Origin: Paracoccus alcaliphilus
GTDB taxonomy: Bacteria; Pseudomonadota; Alphaproteobacteria; Rhodobacterales; Rhodobacteraceae
Assembly (NCBI RefSeq): GCF_028553725.1
Contig: NZ_CP067124.1
Span: 2,800,001 to 2,864,000, forward strand
DNA: 64,000 nucleotides
Reading direction: 5' to 3'
Part shown: positions 37,830-53,760 of the stretch, one piece after another
Layout: every line of letters begins with the position of its first letter
Position numbering within the stretch: the first letter of the stretch is position 1
Position numbers and translations under genes: made by a program
Notes under the pieces: model-generated
What the model was told of the DNA's origin: nothing
Seen by the model: the letters and a program-made list of their open reading frames with translations, nothing else
Databases searched by the model: none

Positions 37830-38606
37830 TCAGTTGTTGCCGTTGTTGAACATCTGCGCGTTGCCCGGCAGGTAGCCGGTGCCGGGTGTCAGGAACCGCT
37901 CGCGCTGGATGCGGCCCTGTTCAGCAGCGGTCGCGCGCTCGGCCTCGGTCAGCGCGTCGGCCCGGCCATTGGCCGAGATGACCGCGATCAGGTCGGAAAG
38001 CTGCTGCGACTGGAGGGCGAGAAGCTGGTTGCCGGCCTGCGTGGCTTGCAGCGCGCCGGTCGCGCCTTGGCTCTGGCCGACCAGCGCGGCCATTTCGGCG
38101 CGGTTGCTGTCGATATTGCCGACCGCTCCCGCCTGCACGCGCATGGCGTCCTGCAAGCTGCCGACCGTGTTCTCCCACCGGCTGCGCGCATCGGCGACAA
38201 GCTGGGCGTCGGTCGCCGAAAGCGAGACATTGCCATATTGCTTCTGGAACGCTTGGTCGATCTGGCCGACCTCGAAGGCGATGTTCTGTGCCTGCCCGAG
38301 AAGCTGCTGCGTGCGCTGGACGCTCTGCTGGAGCTGCTGGAGCGAGGAATATGGCAGGCTCGCCAGATTGCGGGCCTGATTGATGAGCATCTGCGCCTCG
38401 TTCTGGAGGCTCTGAATCTGGTTGTTGATCTGCTCCAGCGTGCGCGCGGCGGTAAGCAGGTTTTGCGCATAGTTGGTCGGGTCATAGACGATCCGGCCGA
38501 AGCCGAATTGTGCATGGGCCGGGCTTGCCAGCATGGGCGAAAGCGCGACGGGCATGGCGAGCGCCAGCGCGAGGGCCGAGGCCCCAACGATCTTGGGATA
38601 GGTCAT
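37830..38606 (-). CDS. trbJ: TrbJ conjugal transfer protein (VirB5-like)
   Basis: A 258-residue secreted protein with a signal peptide ending near SPAHA. It is helical and Gln-rich (QNLLTAARTLEQINNQIQSLQNEAQMLINQARNLASLPYSS), typical of VirB5 minor pilins. It probably sits at the pilus tip and contacts recipients. Its start overlaps the trbE stop. Confidence 0.9.
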   Translation of the reverse strand: MTYPKIVGASALALALAMPVALSPMLASPAHAQFGFGRIVYDPTNYAQNLLTAARTLEQINNQIQSLQNEAQMLINQARNLASLPYSSLQQLQQSVQRTQQLLGQAQNIAFEVGQIDQAFQKQYGNVSLSATDAQLVADARSRWENTVGSLQDAMRVQAGAVGNIDSNRAEMAALVGQSQGATGALQATQAGNQLLALQSQQLSDLIAVISANGRADALTEAERATAAEQGRIQRERFLTPGTGYLPGNAQMFNNGNN

Positions 38607-41095
38607 GGAAGAATCTCCTGTGTGGGGTGGCTATCGAGCGGGGCCGGCGCGGCGGATTCCGGCCGGTCGGCAAGATTGGTGAGGTTCGGGATCAGGTCGG
38701 CCGCCCAATCGACGCCGCGCTCGCGCAGCCATGCGGCGAGGAAGCCGTCGCGGCCGCGTTCGGCGACGATCTGCGCAATGAGGGTCTGGTCGGATTTGGC
38801 GGATGCGGCGCAGAGGGCGAGGCCGACTTCGGACAGGCCAAGCTCGAACAGGCGATTGCCGCGCCGTGACTGGCAGTAATAATCCCGCTTGGGCGTGGCC
38901 CGTGCGAGGATTTCGATCTGCCTGTCATTGAGGCCGAAGCGGCGATAGATGGCCGTGATCTGCGGCTCGATGGCGCGCTCGTTCGGCAGCAAGAGTCGCG
39001 TCGGGCAGCTCTCGATAATCGCGGGCGCGATGTTGCTGCCGTCAATGTCGGACAGGCTTTGTGTGGCGAAGATGACGCTGGCGTTCTTCTTGCGCAGCGT
39101 TTTCAGCCACTCACGGAGCTGGCCGGCGAAACCCTCGTCGTCCAGGGCAAGCCAGCCTTCATCTATGATGAGCAGCGTGGGGCGGCCATCGAGCCGGTCG
39201 CCGATACGATGGAACAGATAAGCAAGCACGGCAGGGGCCGCGCCGGTCCCGACAAGGCCCTCGATCTCGAAGGCTTGCACGTCCGCCGATCCCAAATGCT
39301 CTGTCTCGGCGTCGAGCAGCCGGCCATAGGCACCGCCGACGCAGAACGGACGGAGCGCCTGTTTCAGATCGTTGGATTGCAACAGCACCGCAAGGCCGGT
39401 GATGGTCCGTTCCTCGACCGGCGCGGAAGCGAGCGAAGTCAGCGCCGTCCAAAGGTGTTCCTTGACCTCGGGCGTGATCGCCAGCCCCTCGCGCATGAGG
39501 ATGGCCGCAATCCAGTCCGCCGCCCATGCGCGTTCATAGGTGTCGTGGATGCGGGCAAGTGGCTGGAGCGAAACGGACGCCTCATCTCCTTCCGTGAGGC
39601 CACCGCCCAAATCGTGCCAATCCCCGCCCATGGCGAGCGCGGCGGCGCGGATGCTGCCGCCGAAGTCGAAGGCGAAAACCTGCGATCCCGCATAGCGCCG
39701 GAACTGCAAGGCCATGAGCGCCAGCAGCACGGATTTGCCCGCGCCGGTCGGGCCAACGACAAGGGTGTGTCCTACGTCGCCGACATGGAGACTTAGCCGG
39801 AACGGGGTTGAGCCTTCAGTCTTTCCAAAGAGCAAAGGGGGTGCACCGAAATGCTCGTCCCGTTCCGGCCCCGCCCACACCGCTGAAAGCGGGATCATGT
39901 GGGCGAGATTCAAAGTGCTGATGGGCGGCTGGCGGACATTGGCGTAGGCGTGTCCGGGCAGACTGCCGAGCCATGCGTCAACCGCGTTGACGCTCTCGGG
40001 CATGACGGTGAAGTCACGGCCCTGAACGATCTTCTCGACCAGGCGCAGCTTCTCTTGCGCCACGCGCGGGTCGGCATCCCATACGGTGACGGTCGCCGTG
40101 ACGTAGGCCATGCCCGCCACGTCTGCCCCAAGCTCCTGCAACGCCATGTCGGCGTCGAGCGCCTTGTTCGCCGCGTCGGTGTCCACAAGGGCGGACGCCT
40201 CGTTGGTCATCACCTCTTTCAAGATCGCCGCGATGCTCTTGCGCTTAGCGAACCATTGGCGACGGATGCGGGTCAGCAACCGGGTCGCATCGGTCTTGTC
40301 GAGCAGGATCGCGCGCGTGCCCCACCTGTAGGGGAACGGCAGCCGGTTCATCTCGTCGAGCAGGCCCGGCATCGTTGCGGTCGGGAATCCCACGATGGTC
40401 AGGACGCGCAGATGTGTGTCGCCAAGGCGCGGCTCCAGCCCGCCAGTCAACGGCTGGTCGGCGAGCAGCGCGTCGAGGTGCATCGGCACCTCGGGCACGC
40501 GCACGCGATGGCGGTTGGTTGAGATGGTGGAATGGAGGTAGGTCAGCGTTGCGCCGTCATCCATCCAACGGCACTCGGGCATGAAGCCGTCGAGCAGCGC
40601 CAGCACGCGGTCGGTGCGGTCGATGAAGCCGCGCATCAGCTCCCACGGGTCCACGCCGGTTTTCTCGCGGCCCTCATAGAGCCATGCCTCAGTGCGGGCG
40701 GCTTCCTCGGCCGGGGGCAGCCAGAGGAAGGTGAGGAAGTAGCCGGACACGAAATGCGCGTCCGCTTCCTCGAAACCAGCCTTCCGTTCCGCATCGACCA
40801 GCGCCGACGCGGCATCGGGAAAGCGACTATCGGGATAGGTCGCCGCCTCGCTGCGCTGTGCCTCGACGAAGATGCTCCAGCCGGAGCCGAGACGGCGCAC
40901 GGCGTTGTTGATGCGGCCGGCGACGGCGACCAGCTCGGCCGCGACGGCGGAATCCAGATCGGGGCCGCGAAACTTCGCGGTCCTCTGAAAACTCCCATCC
41001 TTGTTCAAGACGACGCCGGAGCCGACCAGTGCCGCCCATGGCAGATAGTCGGCGAGTCGGGTGGCGGTGCTGCGGTATTCGGCAAGGTTCATCAT
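38603..41095 (-). CDS. trbE: TrbE conjugal transfer ATPase (VirB4-like)
   Basis: An 830-residue protein starting at the ATG at 41095 with GGGAGG upstream. It is the VirB4-type motor. Walker A is LVVGPTGAGKSVLLALM and Walker B is TLLIIDEGWLAL, followed by KKNASVIFATQSLSDI. The N-terminal half is the VirB4 membrane-associated region. It drives pilus assembly and DNA transfer. Confidence 0.94.
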   Translation of the reverse strand: MMNLAEYRSTATRLADYLPWAALVGSGVVLNKDGSFQRTAKFRGPDLDSAVAAELVAVAGRINNAVRRLGSGWSIFVEAQRSEAATYPDSRFPDAASALVDAERKAGFEEADAHFVSGYFLTFLWLPPAEEAARTEAWLYEGREKTGVDPWELMRGFIDRTDRVLALLDGFMPECRWMDDGATLTYLHSTISTNRHRVRVPEVPMHLDALLADQPLTGGLEPRLGDTHLRVLTIVGFPTATMPGLLDEMNRLPFPYRWGTRAILLDKTDATRLLTRIRRQWFAKRKSIAAILKEVMTNEASALVDTDAANKALDADMALQELGADVAGMAYVTATVTVWDADPRVAQEKLRLVEKIVQGRDFTVMPESVNAVDAWLGSLPGHAYANVRQPPISTLNLAHMIPLSAVWAGPERDEHFGAPPLLFGKTEGSTPFRLSLHVGDVGHTLVVGPTGAGKSVLLALMALQFRRYAGSQVFAFDFGGSIRAAALAMGGDWHDLGGGLTEGDEASVSLQPLARIHDTYERAWAADWIAAILMREGLAITPEVKEHLWTALTSLASAPVEERTITGLAVLLQSNDLKQALRPFCVGGAYGRLLDAETEHLGSADVQAFEIEGLVGTGAAPAVLAYLFHRIGDRLDGRPTLLIIDEGWLALDDEGFAGQLREWLKTLRKKNASVIFATQSLSDIDGSNIAPAIIESCPTRLLLPNERAIEPQITAIYRRFGLNDRQIEILARATPKRDYYCQSRRGNRLFELGLSEVGLALCAASAKSDQTLIAQIVAERGRDGFLAAWLRERGVDWAADLIPNLTNLADRPESAAPAPLDSHPTQEILP

Positions 41096-41108
41096 CGACG
41101 CGCCTCCC

Positions 41109-41390
41109 TCACACCGCCAGATGGCCGGGGATGCGCAGATGCCGCCGCCCGACCTCGACAAAGAGGGGATCGCGCTTTGCCGCCCACACGGCCGCGAAAT
41201 GACCGATGGCCCAGATGGCGATGCCGACCAGCCAGAGGCGCAGGCCGAGGCCCACGGCCCCGGCCAGCGTGCCGTTCAGAATCGCGATGGAGCGCGGTGC
41301 GCCGCCGAGCAAAATATGCTCGGTCAGCGCCCGATGGACCGGGACCGTGAACCCCGGCACCGCGTCGAGCTGTTCGAGGCCGCCCGCCAT
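41109..41390 (-). CDS. trbD: TrbD conjugal transfer protein (VirB3-like)
   Basis: A 93-residue protein starting at the ATG at 41390, overlapping the trbC stop (TGATG). It has the VirB3 pattern: VPVHRALTEHILLGGAPRSIAILNGTLAGAVGL and two transmembrane helices. It helps place the pilin for assembly with VirB4. Confidence 0.88.
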   Translation of the reverse strand: MAGGLEQLDAVPGFTVPVHRALTEHILLGGAPRSIAILNGTLAGAVGLGLRLWLVGIAIWAIGHFAAVWAAKRDPLFVEVGRRHLRIPGHLAV

Positions 41391-41722
41391 CAGATGAGCG
41401 CCCCGCCGCCGAACGAGAAGAACGACAGGAAGAAGCTCGACGCCGCGAAGGCGATGGACAGGCCGAACACGATCTGGATCAGCTTGCGAAAGCCGCCGCC
41501 CGTATCGCCGAAGGCCAAAGTCAGGCCGGTCACGATGATGATGATGACGGCGATGATCTTGGCGACCGGCCCTTCGATGGACTGGAGGATGCTTTGGAGC
41601 GGTGCTTCCCACGGCATCGACGAACCGGACGCATGGGCGGCCGGGGCGAGCATGAAGCTGATGACAAGGGTGGATGCGGCGGTCGCGGCGAAGCGATAGC
41701 CGCGCGAAATCGTGCGGATCAT
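41390..41722 (-). CDS. trbC: TrbC pilin (VirB2-like)
   Basis: A 110-residue prepilin. Residues 1 to about 32 are a long signal peptide ending AAHASGS. Two hydrophobic helices follow (VAKIIAVIIIIVTGLTLAF and IAFAASSFFLSFF). It is the major pilus subunit. The TraF-type peptidase at 55326 probably matures and cyclises it. Confidence 0.9.
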   Translation of the reverse strand: MIRTISRGYRFAATAASTLVISFMLAPAAHASGSSMPWEAPLQSILQSIEGPVAKIIAVIIIIVTGLTLAFGDTGGGFRKLIQIVFGLSIAFAASSFFLSFFSFGGGALI

Positions 41723-42714
41723 GAAGATTCTCCTGTGCTGGTGGGGATTGCCAAAGGGATGGGATGCGTGATGCGGTAGTCGCCGTCCGGTCCCAGCCCT
41801 TCGACGCGGGCGAGTTCGGCCAGCCGGCGCGCGGAACCGCGCCCGGAAAGGACGGCAACGAGGTCGATTGTCTCGGCGATCAGGGCGCGCGGGACGGTGA
41901 CGACAGCCTCTTGGATGAGCTGTTCAAGGCGGCGCAGCGCGCCGATGCCGGTGCCTGCATGAATGGTGCCGATCCCGCCCGGATGGCCCGTGCCCCATGC
42001 TTTGAGCAGGTCGAGGGCTTCCGATCCGCGCACCTCGCCGATAGGGATGCGGTCGGGGCGCAGGCGCAGCGAGGACCGGACCAGATCGGAAAGCGTCGCC
42101 ACGCCGTCTTTCGTCCGCATGGCGACAAGGTTGGGCGCGGCGCATTGCAGCTCGCGCGTGTCCTCGATGATGACGACGCGATCCGCCGTCTTCGCCACCT
42201 CGGCGAGCAGCGCATTGGTCAGCGTGGTTTTGCCGGTGCTGGTGCCGCCCGCTACCAAGATATTGGCGCGGGATGCGACGGCTTCGCGCAGCGTTTCCGC
42301 CTGATCGGTGGACATGATGCCCGCCGCCACATAGTCGTCGAGCGTGAACACCGCGACGGCGGGCTTGCGGATGGCGAAGGTCGGGGCAGCGACCACGGGC
42401 GGCAATAGCCCTTCAAACCGCTCCCCGCTCTCGGGCAGTTCGGCCGAGACGCGGGGGCTGCGGGCATGAACCTCCGCGCCGACATGATGCGCGACTAGCC
42501 GAACGATGCGTTCGCCATCGGCGGCGGACAGTCGCTCGCCCGTGTCGGAAAGCCCTTCGGATAGCCGGTCCACCCAAAGGCGACCATCCGGGTTCAGCAT
42601 CACCTCGACGACGGCCGGGTCTTCGAGCAGCCGGGCAATGGCGGGGCCGAGCGCGGTGCGCAACATGCGCGCGCCGCGCGCGATGGATTCCGGTTTTTGG
42701 TGGTTGGTGGTCAT
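41719..42714 (-). CDS. trbB: TrbB conjugal transfer ATPase (VirB11-like)
   Basis: A 331-residue hexameric secretion ATPase. It has Walker [17 protein letters not shown], an Asp box ([10 protein letters not shown]), Walker B and a His box ([16 protein letters not shown]). It is the first gene of the trb operon. The 118 bp upstream carries the repeat shared with traG. Confidence 0.93.
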
Positions 42715-42832
42715 GTCGGCCCCGTTTCTTCATGGGGCGCGACAGGCAATCCCCAGATCGGGGTCGATTAAGAGAGACCGAAATGCGGCCGGTTCAACAA
42801 GTATCTATGAGGCGGCGGTGATCGGCGGCGAA

Positions 42833-42853
42833 CGGCGGTAAATAGGATGGGTC
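42833..42853 (-). promoter_or_regulatory. Shared repeat upstream of trbB
   Basis: GGCGGTAAATAGGATGGGTC here matches GGCGGCAAATAGGACGGGTC at 45441-45460 with two changes. It lies about 120 bp before trbB. The second copy lies about 100 bp before traG. It is likely a common transfer-gene control element. Confidence 0.6.
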
Positions 42854-42860
42854 CGAATAC

Positions 42861-43340
42861 TCATTCTTGATCGCCGTTGCTCTCGGACTCGTCCGGCAAC
42901 TGATCGTCGGGAAGTGAGTCGAGGTCACGCGACAGCTCCTTGAGGAACCTGTCGCCCGTCGCCAGACGCCGGCCGAGATTTTGCATGAAGCCCTCGAACC
43001 GCTCCGCGCCTTTCGCTCGGGCAGCGGATTGTGCGGCTCCCGTAAGCGGCGGTGTGATGGTCATCCAGAAATGGATGAACTGCGCGACCGTCTCGCCGAG
43101 GACGGCGAGATCCAGGTCGAGCGTGTCGATCTGGCGGCCGAGCTTGTCCATGCGGCGCGACATGGCGGCTTCAAGCTGGTCGTCGGCATCGCCGGACAGG
43201 TAAGATATGACCGCCGCCTCCACGATGGCGGATTTTGAGACATTACGGCGCAGCGCCACCGAGCGGCGCAGCGCCATCGCTTCGATCTGCGGAATGAGCG
43301 CGGGGTCGAAATAGAGATTCAGGCGGGTTCTGGTTGCCAT
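42861..43340 (-). CDS. CopG/ribbon-helix-helix-type transfer regulator
   Basis: A 159-residue protein starting at the ATG at 43340 with GAGGA eight bases upstream. Residues 3 to 45 (TRTRLNLYFDPALIPQIEAMALRRSVALRRNVSKSAIVEAA) match a CopG-like ribbon-helix-helix DNA-binding fold. The rest is helical. Neighbours are traG and trbB. It probably controls transfer-gene expression or assists the relaxosome. Confidence 0.8.
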   Translation of the reverse strand: MATRTRLNLYFDPALIPQIEAMALRRSVALRRNVSKSAIVEAAVISYLSGDADDQLEAAMSRRMDKLGRQIDTLDLDLAVLGETVAQFIHFWMTITPPLTGAAQSAARAKGAERFEGFMQNLGRRLATGDRFLKELSRDLDSLPDDQLPDESESNGDQE

Positions 43341-43350
43341 GGTCGTGTCC

Positions 43351-45339
43351 TCAAAGGTCGATTCCGTCATCGGGGTTCAATGCGACCTGCCGCGCGACCA
43401 TCCTCATACGTTGGCGCATGGCGCGGGCCTTGGCCGCGTCAACGTCCGGCTCGTCGTCCACAAACTCGAACTCCTGTTCGGGTGATGGCGGCGGGGCGAC
43501 GATTTCCTCATGCTCAGGCAGCTCCGGCTCGCGGCGGATGCCAGCATTGGCCGGATCGCCCTCGGCCCCGTGTGCGGCGTCGGTCGCGGAATGGCTTTCC
43601 GCCGCGACCACACGGCCGGACCAATCATCGGCGGATGGACTGGGCGCCAGCGGAGCGGCGACCAGATCGGGCGGGGTCAGGATGCGTTCCTGCAACCGCG
43701 CGTCCTCGAAATAGCGGGCCTTGGTCGCGCGGATCGGCGGTGTGCCCGCGACCATCACGATTTCATCGGTGGGCGGAAGCTGCATGATTTCGCCCGGCGT
43801 GAGTAGCGGGCGGGCCGTCTCCTGCCGTGAAACCATGAGATGCCCAAGCCACGGGGCCAATCTGTGCCCGGCGTAGTTGGTGGAGTCGCGCAGTTCGGTC
43901 GCGGTGCCGAGTGCGTCGCTCACCCGCTTGGCCGTCCTTTCGTCGTTCGTGGCGAAGCTGACGCGCACATGGCAGTTGTCGAGGATCGCGTTGTTCGGGC
44001 CATAGGCGCGCTCGATCTGGTTGAGGCTCTGCGCGATCAGGAAGCCTTTGATTCCATACCCCGCCATGAAGGCGAGCGCCGATTCAAAGAAGTCGAGCCG
44101 GCCGAGCGCCGGAAACTCGTCCAGCATCAACAGCAGCCGATGGCGCTTGCCGGAGGTGGTCAGTTCCTCGGTCAACCGCCTGCCGATCTGGTTGAGGATC
44201 AGGCGAATGAGCGGCTTGGTGCGGTTTATGTCGGATGGCGGCACGACCAGATAGAGCGTGACGGGCTGGCGGCTGCCGACCAGGTCGGCAATGCGCCAGT
44301 CGCACCGCGCCGTCACCCGCGCCACCACGGGATCGCGGTAGAGGCCGAGAAACGACATGGCGGTGGAGAGCACGCCCGACCGCTCGTTCTCGGATTTGTT
44401 CAACAGTTCGCGGGCGGACGACGCGATGACGGGATGAGCGCCTGCTTCGCCGAGATGCGGCGTGTCCATCATCGCGCGCAAGGTTGCCTCGACCGGGCGG
44501 CGGGGATCGGACAGGAAGTTGGCGACGCCCGCCAAGGTCTTGTCCTTCTCCGCATAGAGAACATGCAGGATCGCGCCGACCAGCAAGCTATGGCTGGTCT
44601 TTTCCCAATGGTTGCGCTTGTCGAGACTGCCTTCGGGATCGACCAGAATATCCGCGATATTCTGCACGTCGCGGACTTCCCATTCCCCTTGCCGGACCTC
44701 CAGCAGCGGGTTGTAGGCCGACGATCTGGCGTTGGTCGGATCGAACAGCAGCACGCGGCCATGCTTCGCGCGGAAGCCCGCTGTCAGCGTCCAGTTCTCG
44801 CCTTTTATGTCGTGAACGATGGCGGATGCCGGCCATGTCAGCAGCGTCGGCACCACCAGCCCGACGCCTTTGCCGCTACGCGTCGGGGCAAAGCATAGGA
44901 CATGCTCGGGACCGTCATGGCGCAGATAGTCCCGGTCGTATCGGCCGAGCAAGACGCCATCGGGGCCGAGCAATCCGGCCGCACGGATTTCCCGGTCCTC
45001 AGCCCATCGCGCCGATCCGTAGGTGGCGACGTTGCGCGCCTCCCGCGCCCGGATGATCGACATGAAGATGGCGGCGGCGATGGCGAGGAAGCCGCCCGAT
45101 ACCGCGATGATGCCGCCCTCGACGAAGATCGCGGGCGCGTAGGCGTCGAACGAAAACCACCACCAGAAGAAGGCGGGCGGATAATAGACCGGCAGGCCCG
45201 CCAGCTCGAACCATGGTGCTCCAAGCTGCGGCTGGAAGCCGAGGCGGAACGCCGTCCATTGCGTCGCTGCCCACACCATCACCAGAACGATGGTGAAGAC
45301 GGCACCAATCTGCCCCCAAAGGATTCGGCCTCCGCGCAT
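43351..45339 (-). CDS. traG: TraG/VirD4 coupling protein
   Basis: A 662-residue protein starting at the ATG at 45339. Two N-terminal transmembrane helices (IGAVFTIVLVMVWAATQW and a second near residue 70) anchor it. The ATPase has Walker A PTRSGKGVGLVVPTLL and Walker B LLLMLDEFPALGRLD. It docks the relaxase-DNA complex to the channel. The C-terminal 120 residues are a variable acidic tail. Confidence 0.93.
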   Translation of the reverse strand: MRGGRILWGQIGAVFTIVLVMVWAATQWTAFRLGFQPQLGAPWFELAGLPVYYPPAFFWWWFSFDAYAPAIFVEGGIIAVSGGFLAIAAAIFMSIIRAREARNVATYGSARWAEDREIRAAGLLGPDGVLLGRYDRDYLRHDGPEHVLCFAPTRSGKGVGLVVPTLLTWPASAIVHDIKGENWTLTAGFRAKHGRVLLFDPTNARSSAYNPLLEVRQGEWEVRDVQNIADILVDPEGSLDKRNHWEKTSHSLLVGAILHVLYAEKDKTLAGVANFLSDPRRPVEATLRAMMDTPHLGEAGAHPVIASSARELLNKSENERSGVLSTAMSFLGLYRDPVVARVTARCDWRIADLVGSRQPVTLYLVVPPSDINRTKPLIRLILNQIGRRLTEELTTSGKRHRLLLMLDEFPALGRLDFFESALAFMAGYGIKGFLIAQSLNQIERAYGPNNAILDNCHVRVSFATNDERTAKRVSDALGTATELRDSTNYAGHRLAPWLGHLMVSRQETARPLLTPGEIMQLPPTDEIVMVAGTPPIRATKARYFEDARLQERILTPPDLVAAPLAPSPSADDWSGRVVAAESHSATDAAHGAEGDPANAGIRREPELPEHEEIVAPPPSPEQEFEFVDDEPDVDAAKARAMRQRMRMVARQVALNPDDGIDL

Positions 45340-45439
45340 ACAGGCTCCAGTCGGCAAAAAAAGACGGAGCCGATCAGAGAGTAGGCAAAATCGGGACGGG
45401 CAACAGGAAAGAGGATGCCGGAGGGCTGCCGGATACTAT

Positions 45440-45460
45440 CGGCGGCAAATAGGACGGGTC
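45440..45460 (-). promoter_or_regulatory. Shared repeat upstream of traG
   Basis: Second copy of the 21 bp element described at 42833. It lies just before the traG start and close to the end of the lysR gene at 45471. Two copies, each upstream of a transfer operon, suggest a shared regulator. Confidence 0.6.
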
Positions 45461-45470
45461 GCCTTTGCCG

Positions 45471-46454
45471 TTATCGTGCCGGTCGAGTGCCATCGAGGAA
45501 ACGATTGGGCGAATCGCCGTCACGCTTCATTTTGCCTGCGAGGTTGAGTAGATTTTTCAGTGCGGAGCTGCGATTGAACGGCGACCAGACGGCTGTAAAG
45601 GCAACCGGCTCCGGTTCATCGAGGAAGGGCAGGAAGACGATGCCGGTCGTCGGCAATAATGACGTGGCCTCGCCGACGATAGTGATGCCGAAGCCTTGTC
45701 CGACCATAGATAGCAGCGTGCCGCGCCCCACATCAAAGCGCAGGATCGACGGTGCGGGCCAACGCCCGGCAAGGCGCAGCACGATATGGTCATGGACCTG
45801 CGGGCCGGTGCCACCATAGCGAACAATGAAAGTCTCGCCGACCAGATCGGACCAAGTGATTGCGGACTGCCCGGCGAGGCGATGCCCATCCGATAGCACC
45901 ACCACCAGCGGTTCGGTCCAGATCGGTCGGGTATGGCAGTCGGGCATCTCGGGCTTGCCCGCGACGAACGCCACGTCGAGCTGGTCAGCACGAAGCTGCA
46001 TCACCGCATCGCGGGCCGTGCCTTCGGTTATCTCGACCTCAATGCCGGTATGGGCTTCCCGATAATGACGGATCAGCTCCGTGAGAAAGCTGCGTGGGAT
46101 CAAGGCATGGATGCCGATGCGAAGCCGGCCACATTCTCCTTGAGCTGTCATGCCGGCGGTCTTCACCGCGTGATCGAGTTGATCGACACCCGCCGTGACA
46201 CGCTCCATGAAGTGCCTGCCTGCGTCTGTTAGCCGAACGCCCCGCGCATGGCGCTCAAACAGCAGGATACCAAGGTTATCCTCCAGCGCTTTCACACGCG
46301 CGCTGACGCTCGACTGGCTGACGCCGAGTGCCTTGGCCGCATGCCGAAAATTCAGATGCTCGGCGACGGCGATGAACTGAACAAGGGAAATGAGCGGTAT
46401 CCTGCCAGACAGGATACCGCCATTCACGAGGTTTCGATGGTTAGTGCGCCGCAT
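45471..46454 (-). CDS. LysR-type regulator, downstream of floR
   Basis: A 327-residue LysR family protein. The helix-turn-helix at residues about 22 to 60 (FIAVAEHLNFRHAAKALGVSQSSVSARVKALEDNLG) and the effector domain are intact. The gene starts 27 bp after floR, the usual floR-lysR order. It is closely related to the second LysR (48012) but has many differences, so it is not a recent copy. Confidence 0.88.
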   Translation of the reverse strand: MRRTNHRNLVNGGILSGRIPLISLVQFIAVAEHLNFRHAAKALGVSQSSVSARVKALEDNLGILLFERHARGVRLTDAGRHFMERVTAGVDQLDHAVKTAGMTAQGECGRLRIGIHALIPRSFLTELIRHYREAHTGIEVEITEGTARDAVMQLRADQLDVAFVAGKPEMPDCHTRPIWTEPLVVVLSDGHRLAGQSAITWSDLVGETFIVRYGGTGPQVHDHIVLRLAGRWPAPSILRFDVGRGTLLSMVGQGFGITIVGEATSLLPTTGIVFLPFLDEPEPVAFTAVWSPFNRSSALKNLLNLAGKMKRDGDSPNRFLDGTRPAR

Positions 46455-46481
46455 CGGAGCGGGCCTGCCACCAGTCGTCGG

Positions 46482-47696
46482 TTAGACGACTGGCGACTTC
46501 TCGGTGGCAGTCCCACGGAGCCGAAGGAGCGCCAGCCCCAACGACACCAGCACTGCCATCGCCGTGGCGTAACAGATCACCGGCCACGCTGTGTCACCGT
46601 TTAACAGCGTCACCGCCAATGTCCCGACAATGCTGACTATCAGGCTTTGAACGCAGAAGTAGAACGCGACCGCTGATCCTGCGATGTCGTCGAACTCTGC
46701 CAAAGCGCCGTTCGCGGTAACGGACACAGTGAAGACAATGGCGACCGCCATGACCCACATCGGCACGATGAAGGTGAGGAATGACGGCGAACCGAAGAGT
46801 TCGCCGATCCCCAACAGGACCGCCCCGAAAACGAGCAACGCCATTCCACGCGCTACGCATCCCGCGATGCCCCATCTGGTGACAAAGGACTTCGCGAAAC
46901 GAGTTGTCACGATCATTACAAGCGCGACAGTGGCGAAGGCAAAGCTGAATCCGATCTCGGAATATTCCGCTTGGCCTATGAGCACACGGGGAGCCGTCGA
47001 GAAGAAGACGAAGAAGGTGCCCATACCGGCGCTAAAGCCGATGGTGTAAACCCAAAAAGCCGGACTCGCGAAGATCGGCAAAACAGATCGGCGCGTCTTC
47101 GCTTGATCCAGAGGGCGGGTTTCGTGCCACCTGAAACCCGCATTTAGGAGTGCGAGCATCGCCAGTATAGCCAAAGCAATGAATATCGCCTGCCATCCCA
47201 AGAACTCGCCGATCAACGCTCCGGCGATAGGGCCGAGCGCAGGTACGAACGCCAGCATCGAACTGAAAAGGCCGTAGATGACGACACCCTCAGGACGACT
47301 GGCATAAACGTCGCGAACCGTCGCGAACGTCGCCACCAGCATGGCCGACGCGCCGACTGCTTGAAGCAGACGGAAAGCGACAAAGGCTGGTGCAGTTGAA
47401 GACCAAGCTGCTCCCAGAGACGCAATGACGAAAGCCGTTGCGCCCGCAAGTAGAATTGGCCGTCGCCCGATGCGGTCTGAGAGCGGACCAAAAATCACCT
47501 GGCCCACACCGAGCATCACAATATAGAGGCTCAACGTGAGTTGGATCATGGCGGGCGTCGTGTTCAGGATGCCGGGCATCGCTGGAACGACGGGGAGATA
47601 AATATCCATCGCCAGTGAAGCGAGGATGTCGAAGGGAGCCATCAGCAGTAGGGCTGCCGGCAGCGTATAGGCCCATGCAGGGCGTGTGATGGTCAT
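46482..47696 (-). CDS. floR: FloR florfenicol/chloramphenicol exporter
   Basis: A 404-residue MFS drug/H+ antiporter. The sequence matches FloR throughout from memory: MDIYLPVVPAMPGILNTTPAMIQLTLSLY, GPLSDRIGRRPILLAGATAFV and ending ATEKSPVV. It pumps out florfenicol and chloramphenicol and should give high-level resistance. A leader peptide and hairpin lie just upstream, and lysR genes lie on both sides. FloR differs from the commonest version at scattered positions, so it is a variant rather than an identical copy. Confidence 0.95.
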   Translation of the reverse strand: MTITRPAWAYTLPAALLLMAPFDILASLAMDIYLPVVPAMPGILNTTPAMIQLTLSLYIVMLGVGQVIFGPLSDRIGRRPILLAGATAFVIASLGAAWSSTAPAFVAFRLLQAVGASAMLVATFATVRDVYASRPEGVVIYGLFSSMLAFVPALGPIAGALIGEFLGWQAIFIALAILAMLALLNAGFRWHETRPLDQAKTRRSVLPIFASPAFWVYTIGFSAGMGTFFVFFSTAPRVLIGQAEYSEIGFSFAFATVALVMIVTTRFAKSFVTRWGIAGCVARGMALLVFGAVLLGIGELFGSPSFLTFIVPMWVMAVAIVFTVSVTANGALAEFDDIAGSAVAFYFCVQSLIVSIVGTLAVTLLNGDTAWPVICYATAMAVLVSLGLALLRLRGTATEKSPVV

Positions 47697-47774
47697 GATA
47701 AGTCAACCGCTCGATTAAGAAATCTCGGGCGGCGTCTGCACATCAGCAATCACATGGGATTGGTCTCACAGAGC
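47697..47774 (-). promoter_or_regulatory. floR untranslated leader region between hairpin and start codon
   Basis: On the minus strand this 78-base segment contains CGCCGCCCGAG (47724-47734). Its CGCCGC can pair with GCGGCG at the end of the upstream hairpin arm, giving an alternative fold. A weak ribosome binding site (GAGCGGTTGAC) precedes the floR ATG. The competing pairings fit induction by ribosome stalling on the upstream leader ORF. Confidence 0.5.
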
Positions 47775-47802
47775 GCCGCAACAACAATTTTGCTGTTGCG
47801 GC
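47775..47802 (-). promoter_or_regulatory. Hairpin downstream of floR leader peptide (attenuator stem)
   Basis: A perfect 9 bp stem GCCGCAACA with TGTTGCGGC around a 10-base loop, beginning right after the stop codon of the nine-codon leader. There is no T-run, so it is not a normal transcription terminator. The arrangement mirrors translational attenuators of chloramphenicol-resistance genes. Confidence 0.7.
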
Positions 47803-47832
47803 TTACTTGTCTGCTGACTTTGGATTTCCCAT
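47803..47832 (-). CDS. Nine-residue leader peptide of floR
   Basis: The ORF ATG to TAA encodes MGNPKSADK. GGAG lies eight bases before the ATG. It ends directly at the attenuator hairpin. Its sequence resembles the leader of cmlA (MSTSKNADK as I recall it), sharing the Lys-x-Ala-Asp-Lys end. Stalling of a drug-bound ribosome on such a leader is known to open the downstream ribosome binding site of related resistance genes. Confidence 0.75.
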   Translation of the reverse strand: MGNPKSADK

Positions 47833-48011
47833 GCTGACCACTCCACGATCACAAATTTGACTAGCTATCACTTATACGATCAGCTGTTGCCTCGCAATGC
47901 CGTATCGCTGGCTCGTAGCCACCCAATCCCCCGCTGTTGACGTTCCCGTCATTCTTGGCCGTATGAAACCCCTATGCCTTGCTTTGGCGGTTGGCTGGAA
48001 CGGGCAGAGGT

Positions 48012-48974
48012 TCAGTCGACGCGGATCAGCCGACCCATTTCTTTTGCGAGAGAGAGCAGATCACGGAGCGCGGCGCTTCGATTGAACGGCGACCAGACGG
48101 CGGTAAAGGCAACCGGCTCTGGCTCATCGGCGAAAGGCAGGAAGGTGATGCCGGCAGTCGGCAGCAGTGCCGTCGCTGCCCCGACGATGGTAATGCCGAA
48201 TCCCTGTCCGACCATGGATAGTAGCGTGCCACGTCCTACGTCGAAGCGCAGTATCGAAGGCGCGGGCCAGCGCCCGGCAAGGCGCAGCACGATATGGTCA
48301 TGAACCTGCGGGCCAGTGCCACCATAGCGGACAAGGAAGGTTTCGCCGACCAGATCGGCCCAAGTGATTGCCGGCTGCCCGGCAAGACGATGCCTATCCG
48401 GTAGCACCGCTACCAGCGATTCAGTCCAGACCGGCCGTGTATGGCAGTCGGGCAGCTCTGGTGTGCCAGCGACGAACGCCACGTCCAGCCGGTCGGCACG
48501 AAGCTGCATGACCGCATCGCGGGCCGTGCCTTCGGTGATTTCGACCTCGATGCCGGGATGGTTTTCCCGATACTGCCCGATCAGATCGGCGAGGAAGCTG
48601 CGCGGAATCAAGGCATGGACGCCGATGCGCAGGCGGCCCCATTCCCCCGTCGCCGCCATGCCTGCGGTCTTCACCGCATGGTCGAGTTGATCGACGCCGG
48701 CTGCGATCCGCTCGACGAAGTGGCGTCCGGCTTCGGTCAACCGAACGCCACGCGCACGACGCTCGAACAGGAGGATGCCAAGGTCTTCTTCCAGCGCCTT
48801 CACGCGGGCGCTGACGCTGGATTGTGCAACCCCGAGTGCGTTCGCTGCGTGGCGGAAGTTGAGATATTCAGCGACCGCAAGCGTCTGGATCAGCGACAAG
48901 AGAGGTATGCGCGACCCGAGCAGCGTTTCACTTGATCGGAAGGCATCGTTCGCATGTCTTTTCGAACGCCGCAT
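48012..48974 (-). CDS. LysR-type regulator, downstream of RlmN/Cfr-like gene
   Basis: A 320-residue LysR protein with helix-turn-helix near residues 27 to 65 (TLAVAEYLNFRHAANALGVAQSSVSARVKALEEDLG) and the same effector domain architecture as the gene at 45471. It starts 12 bp after the methyltransferase gene, so both share a transcript. It may repress or activate the neighbouring resistance genes. The effector is unknown. Confidence 0.88.
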   Translation of the reverse strand: MRRSKRHANDAFRSSETLLGSRIPLLSLIQTLAVAEYLNFRHAANALGVAQSSVSARVKALEEDLGILLFERRARGVRLTEAGRHFVERIAAGVDQLDHAVKTAGMAATGEWGRLRIGVHALIPRSFLADLIGQYRENHPGIEVEITEGTARDAVMQLRADRLDVAFVAGTPELPDCHTRPVWTESLVAVLPDRHRLAGQPAITWADLVGETFLVRYGGTGPQVHDHIVLRLAGRWPAPSILRFDVGRGTLLSMVGQGFGITIVGAATALLPTAGITFLPFADEPEPVAFTAVWSPFNRSAALRDLLSLAKEMGRLIRVD

Positions 48975-48986
48975 CCTAAGCTCCCG

Positions 48987-50060
48987 CTAGGCGGCCTTTT
49001 TTGTGGCTCCGCGTTTTTCGACCGGGATTCCGCGCAGATCGCGCAACCAGAGCTGACCGCATGCCGCCGAAATATCCCGCCCCTGTGTATCCCGCACCAC
49101 GACCGGCACACCGGCGCGATCCAGCACTTCACGGAAAAGTCCGAGGCTGCGGTCGCCGGTTCGATCAAGCGCGATGCCATCGACAGGATTCCAGCGCATA
49201 AGGTTCACACGCGCCCTTCGCTTGTTCATGAGACCGGCAAGCCGTTTCGCATCAGCAAGCGTGTCGTTGATGCCGGGGAGGACCAGATAGACAAAGGTGA
49301 CGATCCGGTTGTGCCGTTCCGCCCATGACGAAGCGCGCGCGATGACTTCCTTGATGTCGTGCTTACGCGATCCGGGGATGAGACGGTCGCGAACTTCCTG
49401 CGTCGTCGCATGCAGCGATATAGTCAGATTGATCGCCAGATGCTCTTCTCGCAATTGCGCTAGAGCCTTCGGTATGCCGATGGTCGAAAGCGTGATTCCC
49501 GTGGTGGGAAAATTCATCCCTCGCCGGTCGCGCAGGATACGAATCGCCTTCATCACCTGCTCGTAGTTGTTCAAAGGCTCGCCGATGCCCATGAACACGA
49601 TCCGGTTGACCTTCGGCCCGAGTTGAACGACCTGTTCGACAATCTCGCCCGCCGAAAGGTTGCGCTTGAGGCCGGCTTGGCCGGAAGCGCAGAACTGGCA
49701 GGCGAAGGCACATCCAACCTGTGACGAAATACAGGCGGTGTGTCCGTCGTGACGACGGATCAGAACGCTTTCAACGGCATAACCGTCATGAAGGCCGAAA
49801 AGCACCTTCTGCGACCGACCGCCGCGCTCATGCGTGATTTTGCGAAGGCTCCGCAACTGGACGCCCCGAGCCTCTGACCAGTTCCGCAAGGCGCGCGGCA
49901 GGTCCATGTGTGGGCAGAACAGGTCGCGATAAGCGATTTGCGGCCCGCTGCTCGCGTTCAACGCATCGAACTCGTCGGCCATGAGGTTCAGCGCCAAGGT
50001 TGGCGCAGGCAGTGCTTTTTGTCGTTCGCCCCCCAACGGGCTGGGTTCTTGTATAGGCAT
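48987..50060 (-). CDS. RlmN/Cfr-family 23S rRNA A2503 radical SAM methyltransferase
   Basis: A 357-residue enzyme. The radical SAM cluster cysteines are 117, 121 and 124 in GCAFACQFCASG. The methyl-accepting/catalytic Cys is 334 in DISAACGQL. SAM contacts such as GIGEPLNN and TLSTIGIP are present. The N-terminal region is shorter than chromosomal RlmN. It could methylate A2503 at C2 (RlmN) or C8 (Cfr-like). The segment GLKRNL is close to both. It sits on an ICE beside floR and behind an interrupted tetR, so a role in resistance is plausible but unproven. An alternative start is Met 27. Confidence 0.8.
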   Translation of the reverse strand: MPIQEPSPLGGERQKALPAPTLALNLMADEFDALNASSGPQIAYRDLFCPHMDLPRALRNWSEARGVQLRSLRKITHERGGRSQKVLFGLHDGYAVESVLIRRHDGHTACISSQVGCAFACQFCASGQAGLKRNLSAGEIVEQVVQLGPKVNRIVFMGIGEPLNNYEQVMKAIRILRDRRGMNFPTTGITLSTIGIPKALAQLREEHLAINLTISLHATTQEVRDRLIPGSRKHDIKEVIARASSWAERHNRIVTFVYLVLPGINDTLADAKRLAGLMNKRRARVNLMRWNPVDGIALDRTGDRSLGLFREVLDRAGVPVVVRDTQGRDISAACGQLWLRDLRGIPVEKRGATKKAA

Positions 50061-50107
50061 GATAGTCGTTCCGGGTTTCCGTGCCCGGCGATACCGTGGC
50101 GCACGCC

Positions 50108-50140
50108 TTATAAATAACCGACACGACTGTTATAAACAAC
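50108..50140 (-). promoter_or_regulatory. Paired direct repeats between tetR and the methyltransferase gene
   Basis: TTATAAATAAC at 50108 and TTATAAACAAC at 50130 are 11-bp direct repeats 22 bp apart, two helical turns. They lie in the 93 bp gap between the tetR stop and the methyltransferase start. This is a candidate operator for the disrupted TetR regulator. A CCGGG/CCCGG stem lies nearer the start codon. Confidence 0.45.
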
Positions 50141-50675
50141 CCTCCAGATGGTGTTACCCGAACACATGGTCGGGATAGAGGACGGACAGAAGCATGTGGG
50201 TGCGCTTGGTCATGAAAGCCGCTAGCTCGCCTTCCGGCTCAACGAGCCATTGCATGCAAGACCCCTGAATGACCGTCTGAATCAAGCCGGCGGTATGCTC
50301 GGGTGGGCGCGGCCCGGCGGGCAGTCGTGCCTCGATAGCTTTCAGGACCAGTCTGTTCCGCTCCGCCGCAAGGGCGCGAAGCGACGGCTCCTGAACGTCT
50401 CCCCACAATAGAAGAAGGTAGCCTTCCGTTCCGGCACCGTCACCCATACCGGCGATGAGGTCCTTGAGCATCGCCCACAGCGGATCGAGGCCCTTTTCGG
50501 GACTCGCACCCGCGAAATAGTCGCGCACCTCCTGCGTGTTGCGCTCCATGACCTTTAGATGCAGCGTCGCCTTGTCTTTGAACCGCTGGATCAGTGCAGC
50601 CCGCGAGATGCCGACCGCTTCCGCAACATCGGAGAGGGTGAAGGCCGATGGACCTTTCTGAAGAAGGATGCCTAG

Positions 50676-51502
50676 GCTCAGGACCCATTGATTTGCGGCG
50701 TGCGATCTGATTCAGGCTCCTGAGGAGTCTGGATTATGAGCGATCTTTATTGGCTGACGGACGAGCAGATGGCTCGGCTGGAGCCCTATTTCCCTAAGAG
50801 CCACGGCAAACCTCGGGTGGATGATAGGCGGGTGTTGAGCGGGATCATCTTCGTCAACCGCAACGGTCTGCGCTGGCGGGATGCGCCGGCAGCCTACGGG
50901 CCTCACAAGACGCTCTACAATCGCTGGAAGCGGTGGAGCGAGGCTGGCGTCTTCGTTCGGATGATGGAGGGCCTTTCTGGCGCACAGGCCGAACGCCGGA
51001 CCGTCATGATCGATGCCACCTATCTAAAGGCGCACCGTACGGCTTCGAGCCTGCGGGTAAAAAAGGGGGCCTCGGGCGACTGATCGGACGGACCAAAGGC
51101 GGGATGAATACCAAGCTGCACGCCGTCACCGATGCGAATGGACGCCCCATTAGCCTGTTTGTGACGGCTGGTCAGGTCAGCGACTACACCGGCGCGGCGG
51201 CTCTTCTGGATAGTCTACCCCGAGCCCAGTGGCTGCTGGGCGATAGGGGCTATGACGCGGATTGGTTCAGGGACGCCTTGGAAGCCAAGGGGATCACACC
51301 TTGCATCCCCGGACGTAAAACCCGCACCGAGCCCATCCGGTATGACAAGCGCAGATACAAACGACGCACCCGCATCGAAATCATGTTCGGTCGTCTGAAA
51401 GACTGGCGACGCGTTGCCACGCGTTATGATCGGTGCCCGAACGTCTTCCTCTCCGCCATAGCCCTCGCCGCTACAGTGCTCTTTTGGCTATGAGTCCTGA
51501 GC
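50676..51502 (+). mobile_element. IS5-family (IS427-group) insertion sequence, 827 bp
   Basis: Ends carry the inverted repeat GCTCAGGACYCAT, with one mismatch between ends. The 4-bp sequence CTAG is duplicated at both sides (50672-50675 and 51503-51506). It holds one transposase made by frameshift. Size and target duplication fit the IS427 group. It interrupts tetR. Confidence 0.92.
50736..51493 (+). CDS. IS427-group transposase, made by -1 frameshift
   Basis: The first frame (50736-51083) and the second (ending 51493) overlap at a slippery AAAAAAGGGGG near 51058. A -1 shift joins them. The DDE residues are the Asp in VMIDATYLKAH, the Asp in GDRGYDADWFRD and the Glu in RRTRIEIMFGRLKDWRR. The full enzyme would be about 250 residues. 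It moves the IS. Confidence 0.85.
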
Positions 51503-51658: not shown

Positions 51659-53713
51659 CTAAAGGCCAAGGTCATGCCTTCGCCCCAACTGCCACGACAC
51701 CGATCCGCCCTGCACGACGCCAGTGATCTCGCGGCCGAGCTGGCGGTCGATCACCGGCCGCCACGGGACAAGCGTGAACTCATGGCTCTTTTCCACCACG
51801 GCGAACTTGCCGCTCGATAGCTGAACGGTCCCGGTGAACTTGCCGCTGACGTTCTCGCCGTCCGTGGCGGCACGGAACGGCAACCCCTTGCCCTCGGCCA
51901 TCTCCGCGCCAATGCGGGCAACCTCCCGCTCGCGCAAGGTGGCGAGAAGGCTGCGCCGGTAGAAGATGCGGCCGTTCCGTGCTCGGGTGGCATCGCCCTG
52001 TTCGATGTGATGCTCGCGCCGCTGGTCCATCGCCTCACGCACCTGCTGGCCGAAGCCGGCCGGCGCAAGGTCGGCCGTTTCGCCATGGACCAATCGCCGG
52101 TCCAGCCATGTCGTGCCGTCCGATCCGATCTGCTTGCCTAGATCGACCGGGGAAAGGATGCGAACGCTGGCCTGCCGGTCACGGCCGGCGTCATAGGCGG
52201 CGGCGCGGCTGACCAGATCATCGGGGATGCGCCATTGGTCGGCGTCGATCCTCTCGACGATCCCGGCGCGGCGCAATGCCTCCAGTCGCCGGACATGGGC
52301 ATCGACATAGCCCTCATAATCGCCGCCCGGAACGCGGCCCTCGAACTTCGCCTGCTCCAGATGGCGGCTCGGACGATAGATGCCGTCCTCGGTGATGGCG
52401 GCAATGGCGCGTTCGGACGGTCGGGCGGTCGCCTCGGCCGGGCCGATCTGGACGACGCTGCAAACGCGGGCGTCCTCCAGCCGCTCGGGCGCGATGCCTG
52501 CGATGTGGTGCGTCCTGCCGTCGATCCCGTCCACCACAATGGTCAGGTTCTCGCCCAGCTCGTCCGACAGGTGCTTGTCCACGACGCGGCCGACGATGGG
52601 TGTCTCTGGCGCTCCGTCATGGATTTGAAAGCTCATGGGATCGCGTTCGCCTCCCTGCGGGCCGAGCGCCTTCTGCATGGTGCGGATAATGTCGCCGCGC
52701 TCGCCCAACTCGCGCAGGGCCGGCTCCATGTCCTTGCTCAACTCCCAAACGCCGGGCGCGTGCTCGGTCGCCAGTCCCATCTTCTCCAGCTTGGCGAGAC
52801 GGCGCAGGCGTAAGGTGCGCTCGAACTGGCGGCGCGGTGCGGCCGGTTCATGGCGCAGGTCGAGGAACCGGGCATCGGCTTCCTCGGCCATGGCGCGGTC
52901 AATCCGGGTGAAACGGTCCTGGTCTATCTCGGCCGACAGCTTGCGGGTCTGCTCGATTTCGGTGACGGGGCCGAGTTCCAGACTGGCAAGCTCGCTGGCG
53001 CGCTCCCGTAGGCCGTTGGCGAGGTAGTCGCCATTGATGATTAGATCCTCGCCCATCTCGTCGCGGCCGTTGACGATGACATGCACATGGGGATGGCCGG
53101 TGTTGTAGTGGTTGACGGCGACCCAATCGAGTTTCGTGCCGAGGTCGGCTTCCACCTGCTTCATGAAATCGCGGGTGTAGGCCGTGAGGTCCGATAGCTC
53201 CGCGCCATCCTCGGGCGAGACGATGAATCTGAACTGGTGGCGGTCGTCCTTGCCGCGATCAAGGAAGGCGTCGCCATCGGCGCGGTCCTCGGTCGCCGAA
53301 TAGAGCCGGCCCCGCTCGCCGTCGCGTGACGTGCCGTCGCGCTGGACATAGCGCAGATGCGCGCGGGCGCGTGCGCCCTTCCACGCGGCCCGAACGCTGC
53401 GCTGCTTGACGATCACGCGGCGGCTGCCGGGCTGGCGATGATGCCATTGGCCGGAGATGTTCCGAGCGCGCACGAAGCTCGCGCCCCGGCCGCGCTTCAC
53501 GCCCTTGCCGCTGGCGACCACGGCACGGGACCGCCCCGGCGATGACGGGCGAGCGGATGACGGCATGGAAGGATCGCGGGAGGCTGCTGCCTGATGCTGC
53601 CGGGTGATCTTCTTGACCTGCGTGAAAAAGCTCTTGGTCTTGCCGGCCTTCGGTGTGTCGGATCGGATACGGCCCGGCTTCGGACGGAAGCGGTTTTCAT
53701 CGTCGGCGCTCAT
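51659..53713 (-). CDS. Relaxase, VirD2/DUF3363-type
   Basis: A 684-residue relaxase starting at the ATG at 53713. Residues 1 to about 120 are basic. The metal-binding motif is NTGHPHVHVIVNGRD (three His, near residue 210). A long DUF3363 region follows to the end. It nicks the transfer origin and pilots the strand. The upstream region is a candidate oriT. Confidence 0.88.
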   Translation of the reverse strand: MSADDENRFRPKPGRIRSDTPKAGKTKSFFTQVKKITRQHQAAASRDPSMPSSARPSSPGRSRAVVASGKGVKRGRGASFVRARNISGQWHHRQPGSRRVIVKQRSVRAAWKGARARAHLRYVQRDGTSRDGERGRLYSATEDRADGDAFLDRGKDDRHQFRFIVSPEDGAELSDLTAYTRDFMKQVEADLGTKLDWVAVNHYNTGHPHVHVIVNGRDEMGEDLIINGDYLANGLRERASELASLELGPVTEIEQTRKLSAEIDQDRFTRIDRAMAEEADARFLDLRHEPAAPRRQFERTLRLRRLAKLEKMGLATEHAPGVWELSKDMEPALRELGERGDIIRTMQKALGPQGGERDPMSFQIHDGAPETPIVGRVVDKHLSDELGENLTIVVDGIDGRTHHIAGIAPERLEDARVCSVVQIGPAEATARPSERAIAAITEDGIYRPSRHLEQAKFEGRVPGGDYEGYVDAHVRRLEALRRAGIVERIDADQWRIPDDLVSRAAAYDAGRDRQASVRILSPVDLGKQIGSDGTTWLDRRLVHGETADLAPAGFGQQVREAMDQRREHHIEQGDATRARNGRIFYRRSLLATLREREVARIGAEMAEGKGLPFRAATDGENVSGKFTGTVQLSSGKFAVVEKSHEFTLVPWRPVIDRQLGREITGVVQGGSVSWQLGRRHDLGL

Positions 53714-53760
53714 GGGCGCGACTCCTGATAAAACCACCGAAAAACGGCTGATATGGGCCT

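What the first reader, a model, noticed from the sequence alone, without database searches (positions are those of the whole stretch)
47697..47832. Leader peptide and hairpin suggest drug-inducible translational attenuation of floR
Seen: on the minus strand, a GGAG ribosome binding site, a nine-codon ORF MGNPKSADK (47832-47803), then at once a perfect 9 bp hairpin (47802-47775) with no T-run, then floR 78 bases later. Known: cat and cmlA genes are induced when a chloramphenicol-bound ribosome stalls on a short leader. The cmlA leader, as I recall it, is MSTSKNADK, sharing the end K-x-A-D-K. GCGGCG in the right arm can also pair with CGCCGC downstream (47724-47734). Inferred: floR here is inducible. 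I do not recall such a leader being standard for floR, so a regulatory variant or a borrowed leader is possible.
Basis: partly seen in the sequence, partly recalled or inferred. Interest (0 to 1): 0.8.

Follow-up and report, generated by a model that had tools for sequence, protein, structure and literature searches.

The report
Drug-sensing mRNA switch before floR
The message for this florfenicol-resistance pump begins with a tiny decoy gene and RNA hairpins that probably let a drug-stalled ribosome switch the pump on; such a leader is already described for floR, but comparison with relatives suggests how the distant hairpin could reach the gene's start signal and that the switch is older than the mobile resistance gene.

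Summary
In detail: nine-codon ORF MGNPKSADK with a GGAG site, an abutting hairpin without T-run, floR 78 bases on. The idea that such a leader is unusual or borrowed does not: it is the usual floR leader, in print as a putative attenuator (PMC5890775, PMC8256890), with drug induction measured as mRNA. Both papers note that the hairpin lies away from the floR ribosome-binding site; one calls its role unclear. Leader and hairpin occur in 119 of 125 floR-family loci examined, down to about 59% FloR identity. Best reading: a four-segment switch. Segment 1 pairs with 2, so 3 pairs with 4, which holds the binding site; a phenicol-stalled ribosome covers 1, 2 pairs with 3, and 4 is freed. Pair changes support 1:2 and 3:4, and 2:3 weakly. 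Against it: equilibrium folding opens the site clearly in only 8 of 40 leaders, the commonest mobile allele fits poorly, and RNAalifold does not show 3:4. In 65 of 65 readable leaders the third residue from the end is Ala, Ser or Thr, the residues that favour chloramphenicol stalling. Nothing was tested at the bench.

The parts
47872..47897 (-). promoter-like stretch TTG-N18-TATAA, upstream of the leader
   Evidence: a like pattern in 25 of 31 non-redundant loci, 6.3% of shuffles; the pattern was chosen after seeing the sequences; the stricter sigma-70 scan found none
47841..47844 (-). GGAG ribosome-binding site of the leader ORF
   Evidence: sequence
47803..47832 (-). leader ORF MGNPKSADK-stop
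   Evidence: conserved peptide end in relatives
47775..47802 (-). leader hairpin (segments 1 and 2 paired)
   Evidence: covariation
47792..47802 (-). segment 1
47768..47785 (-). segment 2 (47785-47775 pairs with 1; 47779-47768 can pair with 3)
47725..47739 (-). segment 3 (47739-47729 can pair with 2; 47732-47725 pairs with 4)
47707..47714 (-). segment 4, overlaps the best (weak) match to the anti-SD before floR
46482..47696 (-). floR, phenicol exporter
   Evidence: NF000219 FloR 871.5 bits, cut-off 700

Best explanation
A four-segment translational attenuator of the ermC/cmlA kind. Without drug the leader is translated and released; segment 1 pairs with 2 and segment 3 with 4, hiding the floR ribosome-binding site. 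A ribosome with bound chloramphenicol or florfenicol stalls when Ala7 (or Ser6) is the penultimate residue of the nascent leader, with codon 8 (or 7) in the P site, and covers much of segment 1. Segment 2 then pairs with 3, segment 4 is freed and FloR is made. Shown here: the segments, their conservation, and pair changes across relatives. From papers: drug induction of other floR alleles as mRNA, and the chloramphenicol stalling rule. Inferred: stalling on this leader, ribosome coverage, the switch, and its effect on translation.
For: Leader and hairpin in 119 of 125 floR-family loci (83 of 89; 36 of 36). 1:2: 99.4% of cells paired in 31 non-redundant leaders, 3 pairs changed on both sides, 0 of 500 shuffles as high on cells paired and on double-changed cells. 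3:4: 97.4% of cells paired in the 31 rows of one register class, 7 double-changed cells, 1 of 500 shuffles. Partner swapping among 31 leaders: own partners bind better for 3:4 (0 of 10000 permutations) and 2:3 (145 of 10000). Energy order needed for a switch holds in 28 of 31. For the window, hiding segment 1 raises the unpaired share of segment 4 from 0.16 to 0.50. Third residue from the leader end Ala 48, Ser 16, Thr 1 of 65, matching the stalling rule (PMC8066774, passages). The CmlA leader KNAD arrests with chloramphenicol (PMC10192921, passages). Model R1 hits at E below 1e-6 in exactly the 31 of 247 genomes that hold a FloR relative (recall partly by construction).
Against: At equilibrium, hiding segment 1 opens segment 4 in 32 of 40 leaders but by more than 0.2 in only 8 (8.3% of shuffles do so); the commonest mobile type (L004) moves the other way and the L002 type hardly moves. 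RNAalifold on 40 leaders does not return 3:4. 3:4 complementarity is within 5 of 500 shuffled spacers in 0 of 40 rows, 2:3 in 22 of 40. 2:3 shows no covariation above shuffles in the 40-row alignment (385 of 500). On two other measures are not exceptional (30 and 472 of 500). The outer four pairs of 3:4 vary on one side only. The floR SD match is weak. The published induction is of mRNA. Related rows inflate shuffle tests, and I chose the registers after looking.
Confidence: 0.7

Rival explanations
1. The stalled leader ribosome mainly protects the transcript from decay, so floR mRNA and hence FloR rise without any switch at the floR start.
For: Published induction was measured as mRNA (PMC5890775, PMC8256890; passages); equilibrium opening of segment 4 is weak in most leaders.
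Against: It does not explain the paired changes in 3:4, which lies far from the leader.
Confidence: 0.15
2. The leader controls transcription: the hairpin, or Rho acting on untranslated RNA, stops transcription unless a ribosome stalls.
For: Induction seen as mRNA; a strong hairpin follows the leader.
Against: No T-run and no terminator-like site in 47690-48020; 3:4 would have no role. Rho dependence was not tested.
Confidence: 0.08
3. A neighbouring LysR regulator induces floR transcription and the leader adds little.
For: A lysR gene ends 179 bases before the leader and an 83% identical one follows floR.
Against: Leader and segments are kept in many relatives; published plasmid floR contexts without an upstream lysR (e.g. 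L002, L004) keep the leader. Not exclusive with attenuation.
Confidence: 0.05
4. The leader is a conserved but idle passenger.
For: Two relatives lack the leader stop (L073, L074) and six Bacteroidota floR copies lack the leader.
Against: Peptide end and pairing are kept to about 59% FloR identity.
Confidence: 0.02

Closest known systems
Putative floR attenuator of ICEApl2, pAR060302 and P. aeruginosa floR variants (PMC5890775, PMC8256890; passages read)
   Same: Nine-residue leader, adjoining inverted repeat (11 bp there), floR downstream; drug induction as mRNA.
   Different: This allele has Pro at position 4; those papers see a hairpin away from the RBS and propose no second pairing in the passages I read.
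cmlA attenuator (Stokes and Hall 1991, as reviewed in PMC8876359; passages read; cmlA1 DNA read in L099)
   Same: Leader ending K-x-A-D-K, same segment 1 and 2 core, a CGCCGC segment 3, two alternate stem-loops described; model R1 matches it at 57.3 bits.
   Different: Start-site hairpin of other sequence; in my folds that hairpin largely persists when segment 1 is removed, so switching is less clear there.
ermC attenuator (recalled; named as similar in PMC8876359)
   Same: Alternative pairings 1:2 + 3:4 versus 2:3 controlled by a stalled leader ribosome.
   Different: Macrolide-sensing, unrelated leader.
cat and fexA attenuators (recalled; named in PMC5890775)
   Same: Phenicol-induced stalling on a short leader.
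   Different: According to PMC5890775 their attenuators overlap the RBS directly.

Membership tests
floR attenuator as published | nine-residue leader ORF and adjoining inverted repeat upstream of floR | tested here: met
   PMC5890775 passages
floR attenuator as published | drug induction of floR | not testable with these tools
   published for other alleles only
four-segment translational attenuator (ermC/cmlA kind) | hairpin 1:2 conserved with paired changes | tested here: met
four-segment translational attenuator (ermC/cmlA kind) | helix 3:4 over the ribosome-binding site of the gene | tested here: met
   for relatives; not returned by RNAalifold and poor in the commonest mobile allele
four-segment translational attenuator (ermC/cmlA kind) | alternative helix 2:3 competing with both | tested here: inconclusive
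   97.0% of cells paired but no covariation above shuffles; swap test 145 of 10000
four-segment translational attenuator (ermC/cmlA kind) | freeing of the binding site when segment 1 is occupied | tested here: inconclusive
   window 0.16 to 0.50, but over 0.2 in only 8 of 40
four-segment translational attenuator (ermC/cmlA kind) | drug-dependent stall in the leader | not testable with these tools
   peptide end fits the rule in 65 of 65 readable leaders; no experiment
transcription attenuator | intrinsic terminator in the leader region | tested here: not met

The most novel reading that the evidence does not exclude
The phenicol-sensing four-segment switch is an ancestral part of an alphaproteobacterial exporter family. 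Mobile floR arose inside that family and carried the switch along; cmlA holds a related one. This would answer the point left open in print, how a hairpin distant from the floR start can control it. Since mobilisation the switch has drifted: the commonest mobile allele is predicted to pair less well over the start site, and the Bacteroidota copies seen have lost the leader.
Probability: 0.5. Interest if true: 0.6.

Novelty: new member of a known kind. Interest (0 to 1): 0.42.

Why it matters
Two papers left open whether the floR attenuator acts at all, because its hairpin lies away from the start site. The segment model gives a testable answer, predicts the stall codons, and makes drug sensing something inherited with the exporter from environmental bacteria instead of added after mobilisation. 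The floR leader itself is already known; what I did not find in print (nine searches of one open-access library) is the pairing that reaches the start site and the wide distribution in relatives.

Tried and rejected
Borrowed or unusual leader: rejected, it is the usual one. A real exchange was seen elsewhere: L051 has a cmlA-like leader before a floR2-like gene. Terminator: none found. Rfam: one listing at E up to 1 in 45000-51000, HCV_SL669 at 22.9 bits against a gathering score of 80, taken as chance. Hairpin pattern in the class: 2 of 385 genomes, the own one (two floR copies) and G051, whose hairpin lies by another gene. NF033134 in the class: 1 of 385 genomes over the cut-off, the own one. 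The strong R1 match G784:C9 lies before a short FloR-like 5' remnant. Seven genomes have R1 matches at E 1e-4 to 0.01 and no FloR found; one was looked at (L199) and did not look like such a leader. The different induction of floR-T1 and floR-T2 in PMC8256890 looked like a test of the model, but figures are not held and I could not identify their leaders, so nothing is claimed.

Rows and counts: the 89 loci are 9 plasmid loci plus 80 (best 80 of 190 confirmed stretches). L007 (leader before a beta-lactamase gene), L099-L101 (cmlA), L102 and the own second copy L092 are not in the 89. Searches gave 31 and 6 genomes, 37 matches; 36 became loci then; some repeat earlier ones (L141 is L090, L171 is L080). 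The 37th (L198) was fetched later and shows leader and segments by eye. 76 rows (40 of A1 plus 36) gave 69 distinct leaders. Not in the 65 of the residue count: L073 and L074 (no stop), L146 (no ATG found), L158 (start outside the scanned 200 bases). 31 non-redundant leaders remain at a similarity limit of 0.85.

Full report
What is there. On the minus strand, 179 bases after the end of a lysR gene, lie a promoter-like stretch (47897-47872), GGAG (47844-47841), the ORF MGNPKSADK-stop (47832-47803), a hairpin from the next base on, and after 78 more bases floR (47696-46482). FloR scores 871.5 bits against a cut-off of 700. The hairpin has 9 perfect pairs, 12 with a G-U; the 106-base region folds far better than its shuffles (z -4.1, 0 of 200). 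No terminator-like site was found. A promoter-like pattern lies upstream of the leader in 25 of 31 non-redundant loci against 6.3% of shuffles, but I chose the pattern after looking, and the stricter scan of the window found none.

How common it is. 2282 plasmid records match this region; of 60 taken evenly down the ranking 58 cover the whole leader. In complete E. coli genomes 949 of 5426 hold a match over at least 80% of the 204-base regulatory region. Of 89 floR-family loci 83 have the segment 1 motif; the six without are Bacteroidota copies in which no such leader was seen. Searches of 247 and 248 genomes around a Rhizobium and a Microvirga found FloR relatives in 31 and 6; leader, hairpin and downstream segments are seen in 36 of the 36 loci fetched and, by eye, in the 37th. 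Identity to this FloR falls to 59% among rows of the tree. Many relatives lie on long contigs and are presumably chromosomal; this was not checked one by one. FloR itself is patchy near the window's genome: 1 of 20 other genomes of its genus at E 1e-110 or better.

What is already known. PMC5890775 (passages) describes before floR of ICEApl2 and a plasmid a nine-residue ORF and an 11-bp inverted repeat that does not overlap the floR RBS, cites an eight-fold rise under florfenicol (Lang et al. 2012; not held) and reports more floR RT-PCR product with chloramphenicol. PMC8256890 (passages) finds the like for P. aeruginosa variants, mRNA induction strong for floR-T2 and slight for floR-T1, and says that, the stem-loop being distant from the RBS, its role is not clear. 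For cmlA a review (PMC8876359, passages) describes two alternate stem-loops, one hiding the start region. Nine library searches turned up no paper that I saw to propose an alternative pairing for floR; most listed papers were seen as listings only.

Proposed mechanism. Segment 1 is 47802-47792, 2 is 47785-47768, 3 is 47739-47725, 4 is 47714-47707. 1 pairs with 2; 3 pairs with 4, which overlaps the best, though weak, anti-SD match before floR (31 of 31 non-redundant loci). CGCCGC in segment 3 can instead pair with segment 2, so occupying segment 1 should favour 2:3 and release 4.

Evidence on the helices. 1:2: 99.4% of cells paired in 31 non-redundant leaders, three pairs changed on both sides, 0 of 500 shuffles as high on cells paired, double-changed cells and covariation; slid by 1-2 columns it falls to 27-33%, by 3 to 74%. 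In 69 distinct leaders nine of eleven pairs form in 69 and two in 65. 3:4: in the first alignment of 40 leaders its main helix is 92.9% paired. There are two register classes. The outer four pairs form in 99.2% of cells of 65 distinct rows with one-sided changes only, so they add no covariation. In 31 rows of the bulged class 97.4% of cells pair (0 of 500 shuffles), with 7 double-changed cells and covariation each reached by 1 of 500, while pairs changed on both sides (30 of 500) and further pair types (472 of 500) are not exceptional. 2:3: 97.0% of cells paired, reached by 36 of 500 shuffles; covariation 385 of 500. Swapping partners among 31 leaders: 3:4 -10.86 own against -9.00 swapped, 0 of 10000, own better in 29 of 31; 2:3 -19.61 against -18.73, 145 of 10000, own better in 21 of 31. 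The energy order for a switch (1:2 plus 3:4 below 2:3 below 3:4 alone) holds in 28 of 31.

Against or missing. At equilibrium, hiding segment 1 in 40 leaders raises 2:3 pairs from 1.7 to 7.6 and lowers 3:4 pairs from 7.3 to 4.3 on average, but segment 4 opens only from 0.18 to 0.275: upward in 32 of 40, over 0.2 in 8 of 40, against 8.3% of shuffles. The window does well (0.16 to 0.50); L002 hardly moves (0.15 to 0.16) and L004, the commonest mobile type, goes from 0.43 to 0.31. RNAalifold on the 40 leaders returns 1:2 and part of 2:3, not 3:4. Against shuffled spacers, 2:3 is within 5 of 500 in 22 of 40 rows, 3:4 in none and within 25 of 500 in 2. Related rows inflate shuffle tests.

The leader peptide. 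Of 69 distinct leaders 65 were read with a start and a stop abutting the hairpin. Third residue from the end: Ala 48, Ser 16, Thr 1; next: Asp 60, Thr 4, Arg 1; last: Lys 38, Arg 23, Thr 3, Asn 1. Synonymous codons vary there in 40 leaders, which speaks for selection on the peptide. Chloramphenicol arrests when Ala, less so Ser or Thr, is penultimate and no Gly comes in (PMC8066774, passages); the CmlA leader KNAD arrests with it (PMC10192921, passages). The likely stall has codon 8 in the P site; with the usual ribosome footprint (recalled) most of segment 1 would be covered. That florfenicol follows the same rule is assumed.

Distribution and age. Model R1, built on 31 leaders, matches at E below 1e-6 in exactly the 31 of 247 genomes that hold a FloR relative; recall is partly by construction. 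Seven other genomes have matches at E 1e-4 to 0.01. R1 also matches cmlA1 (57.3 bits). In a tree of 38 proteins the window and two mobile types form a starred group inside a starred group of 17 rows, mostly alphaproteobacterial with one Marinobacter and one Myxococcota bin; many inner branches are unresolved and cmlA1 is a very long branch. That the switch was inherited with the exporter is inferred from this.

Verdict. A real, functional-looking phenicol attenuator, already described for floR. Added here, as far as searched: the pairing model that reaches the start site, the constraint at the stall codons, and the wide distribution among relatives.

Noticed in passing
48987-50060, minus strand: A divergent RlmN/Cfr-family methyltransferase beside lysR-floR: RlmN model 275.7 bits (cut-off 290), Cfr 196.6 (cut-off 550); the genome's other copy is 40% identical. 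An rlmN stands at the same place in a Rhodobacter plasmid (L001). Possibly an accessory enzyme acting near the phenicol site.
   Followed up: partly
48012-48974 and 45471-46454: Two LysR genes, 83% identical over 298 residues, flank floR.
   Followed up: partly
G000:C1:2427552-2428763 (L092): A second, 90% identical floR in the same genome, with leader MGNSKSADK.
   Followed up: partly
L051, 2366-2503: Comamonas copy with the cmlA leader MSTSKNADK before a floR2-like hairpin and gene: a natural leader exchange.
   Followed up: partly
L007, 1989-2165: The floR leader and a floR 5' piece lie upstream of blaAFM-1.
   Followed up: no
L073 and L074, leader: The leader lacks its stop codon, so the frame runs on into the hairpin.
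   Followed up: no
L008, L027, L029, L035, L037, L038: Bacteroidota floR copies without the leader; in L008 an IS4351-type transposase gene lies just upstream.
   Followed up: no
38603-45357 and 51659-53737: Conjugation-type genes (TraG/VirB4-like, coupling protein, DUF3363 relaxase) flank the floR region; an IS4/5-type transposase lies at 50736-51493 in two overlapping frames.
   Followed up: no
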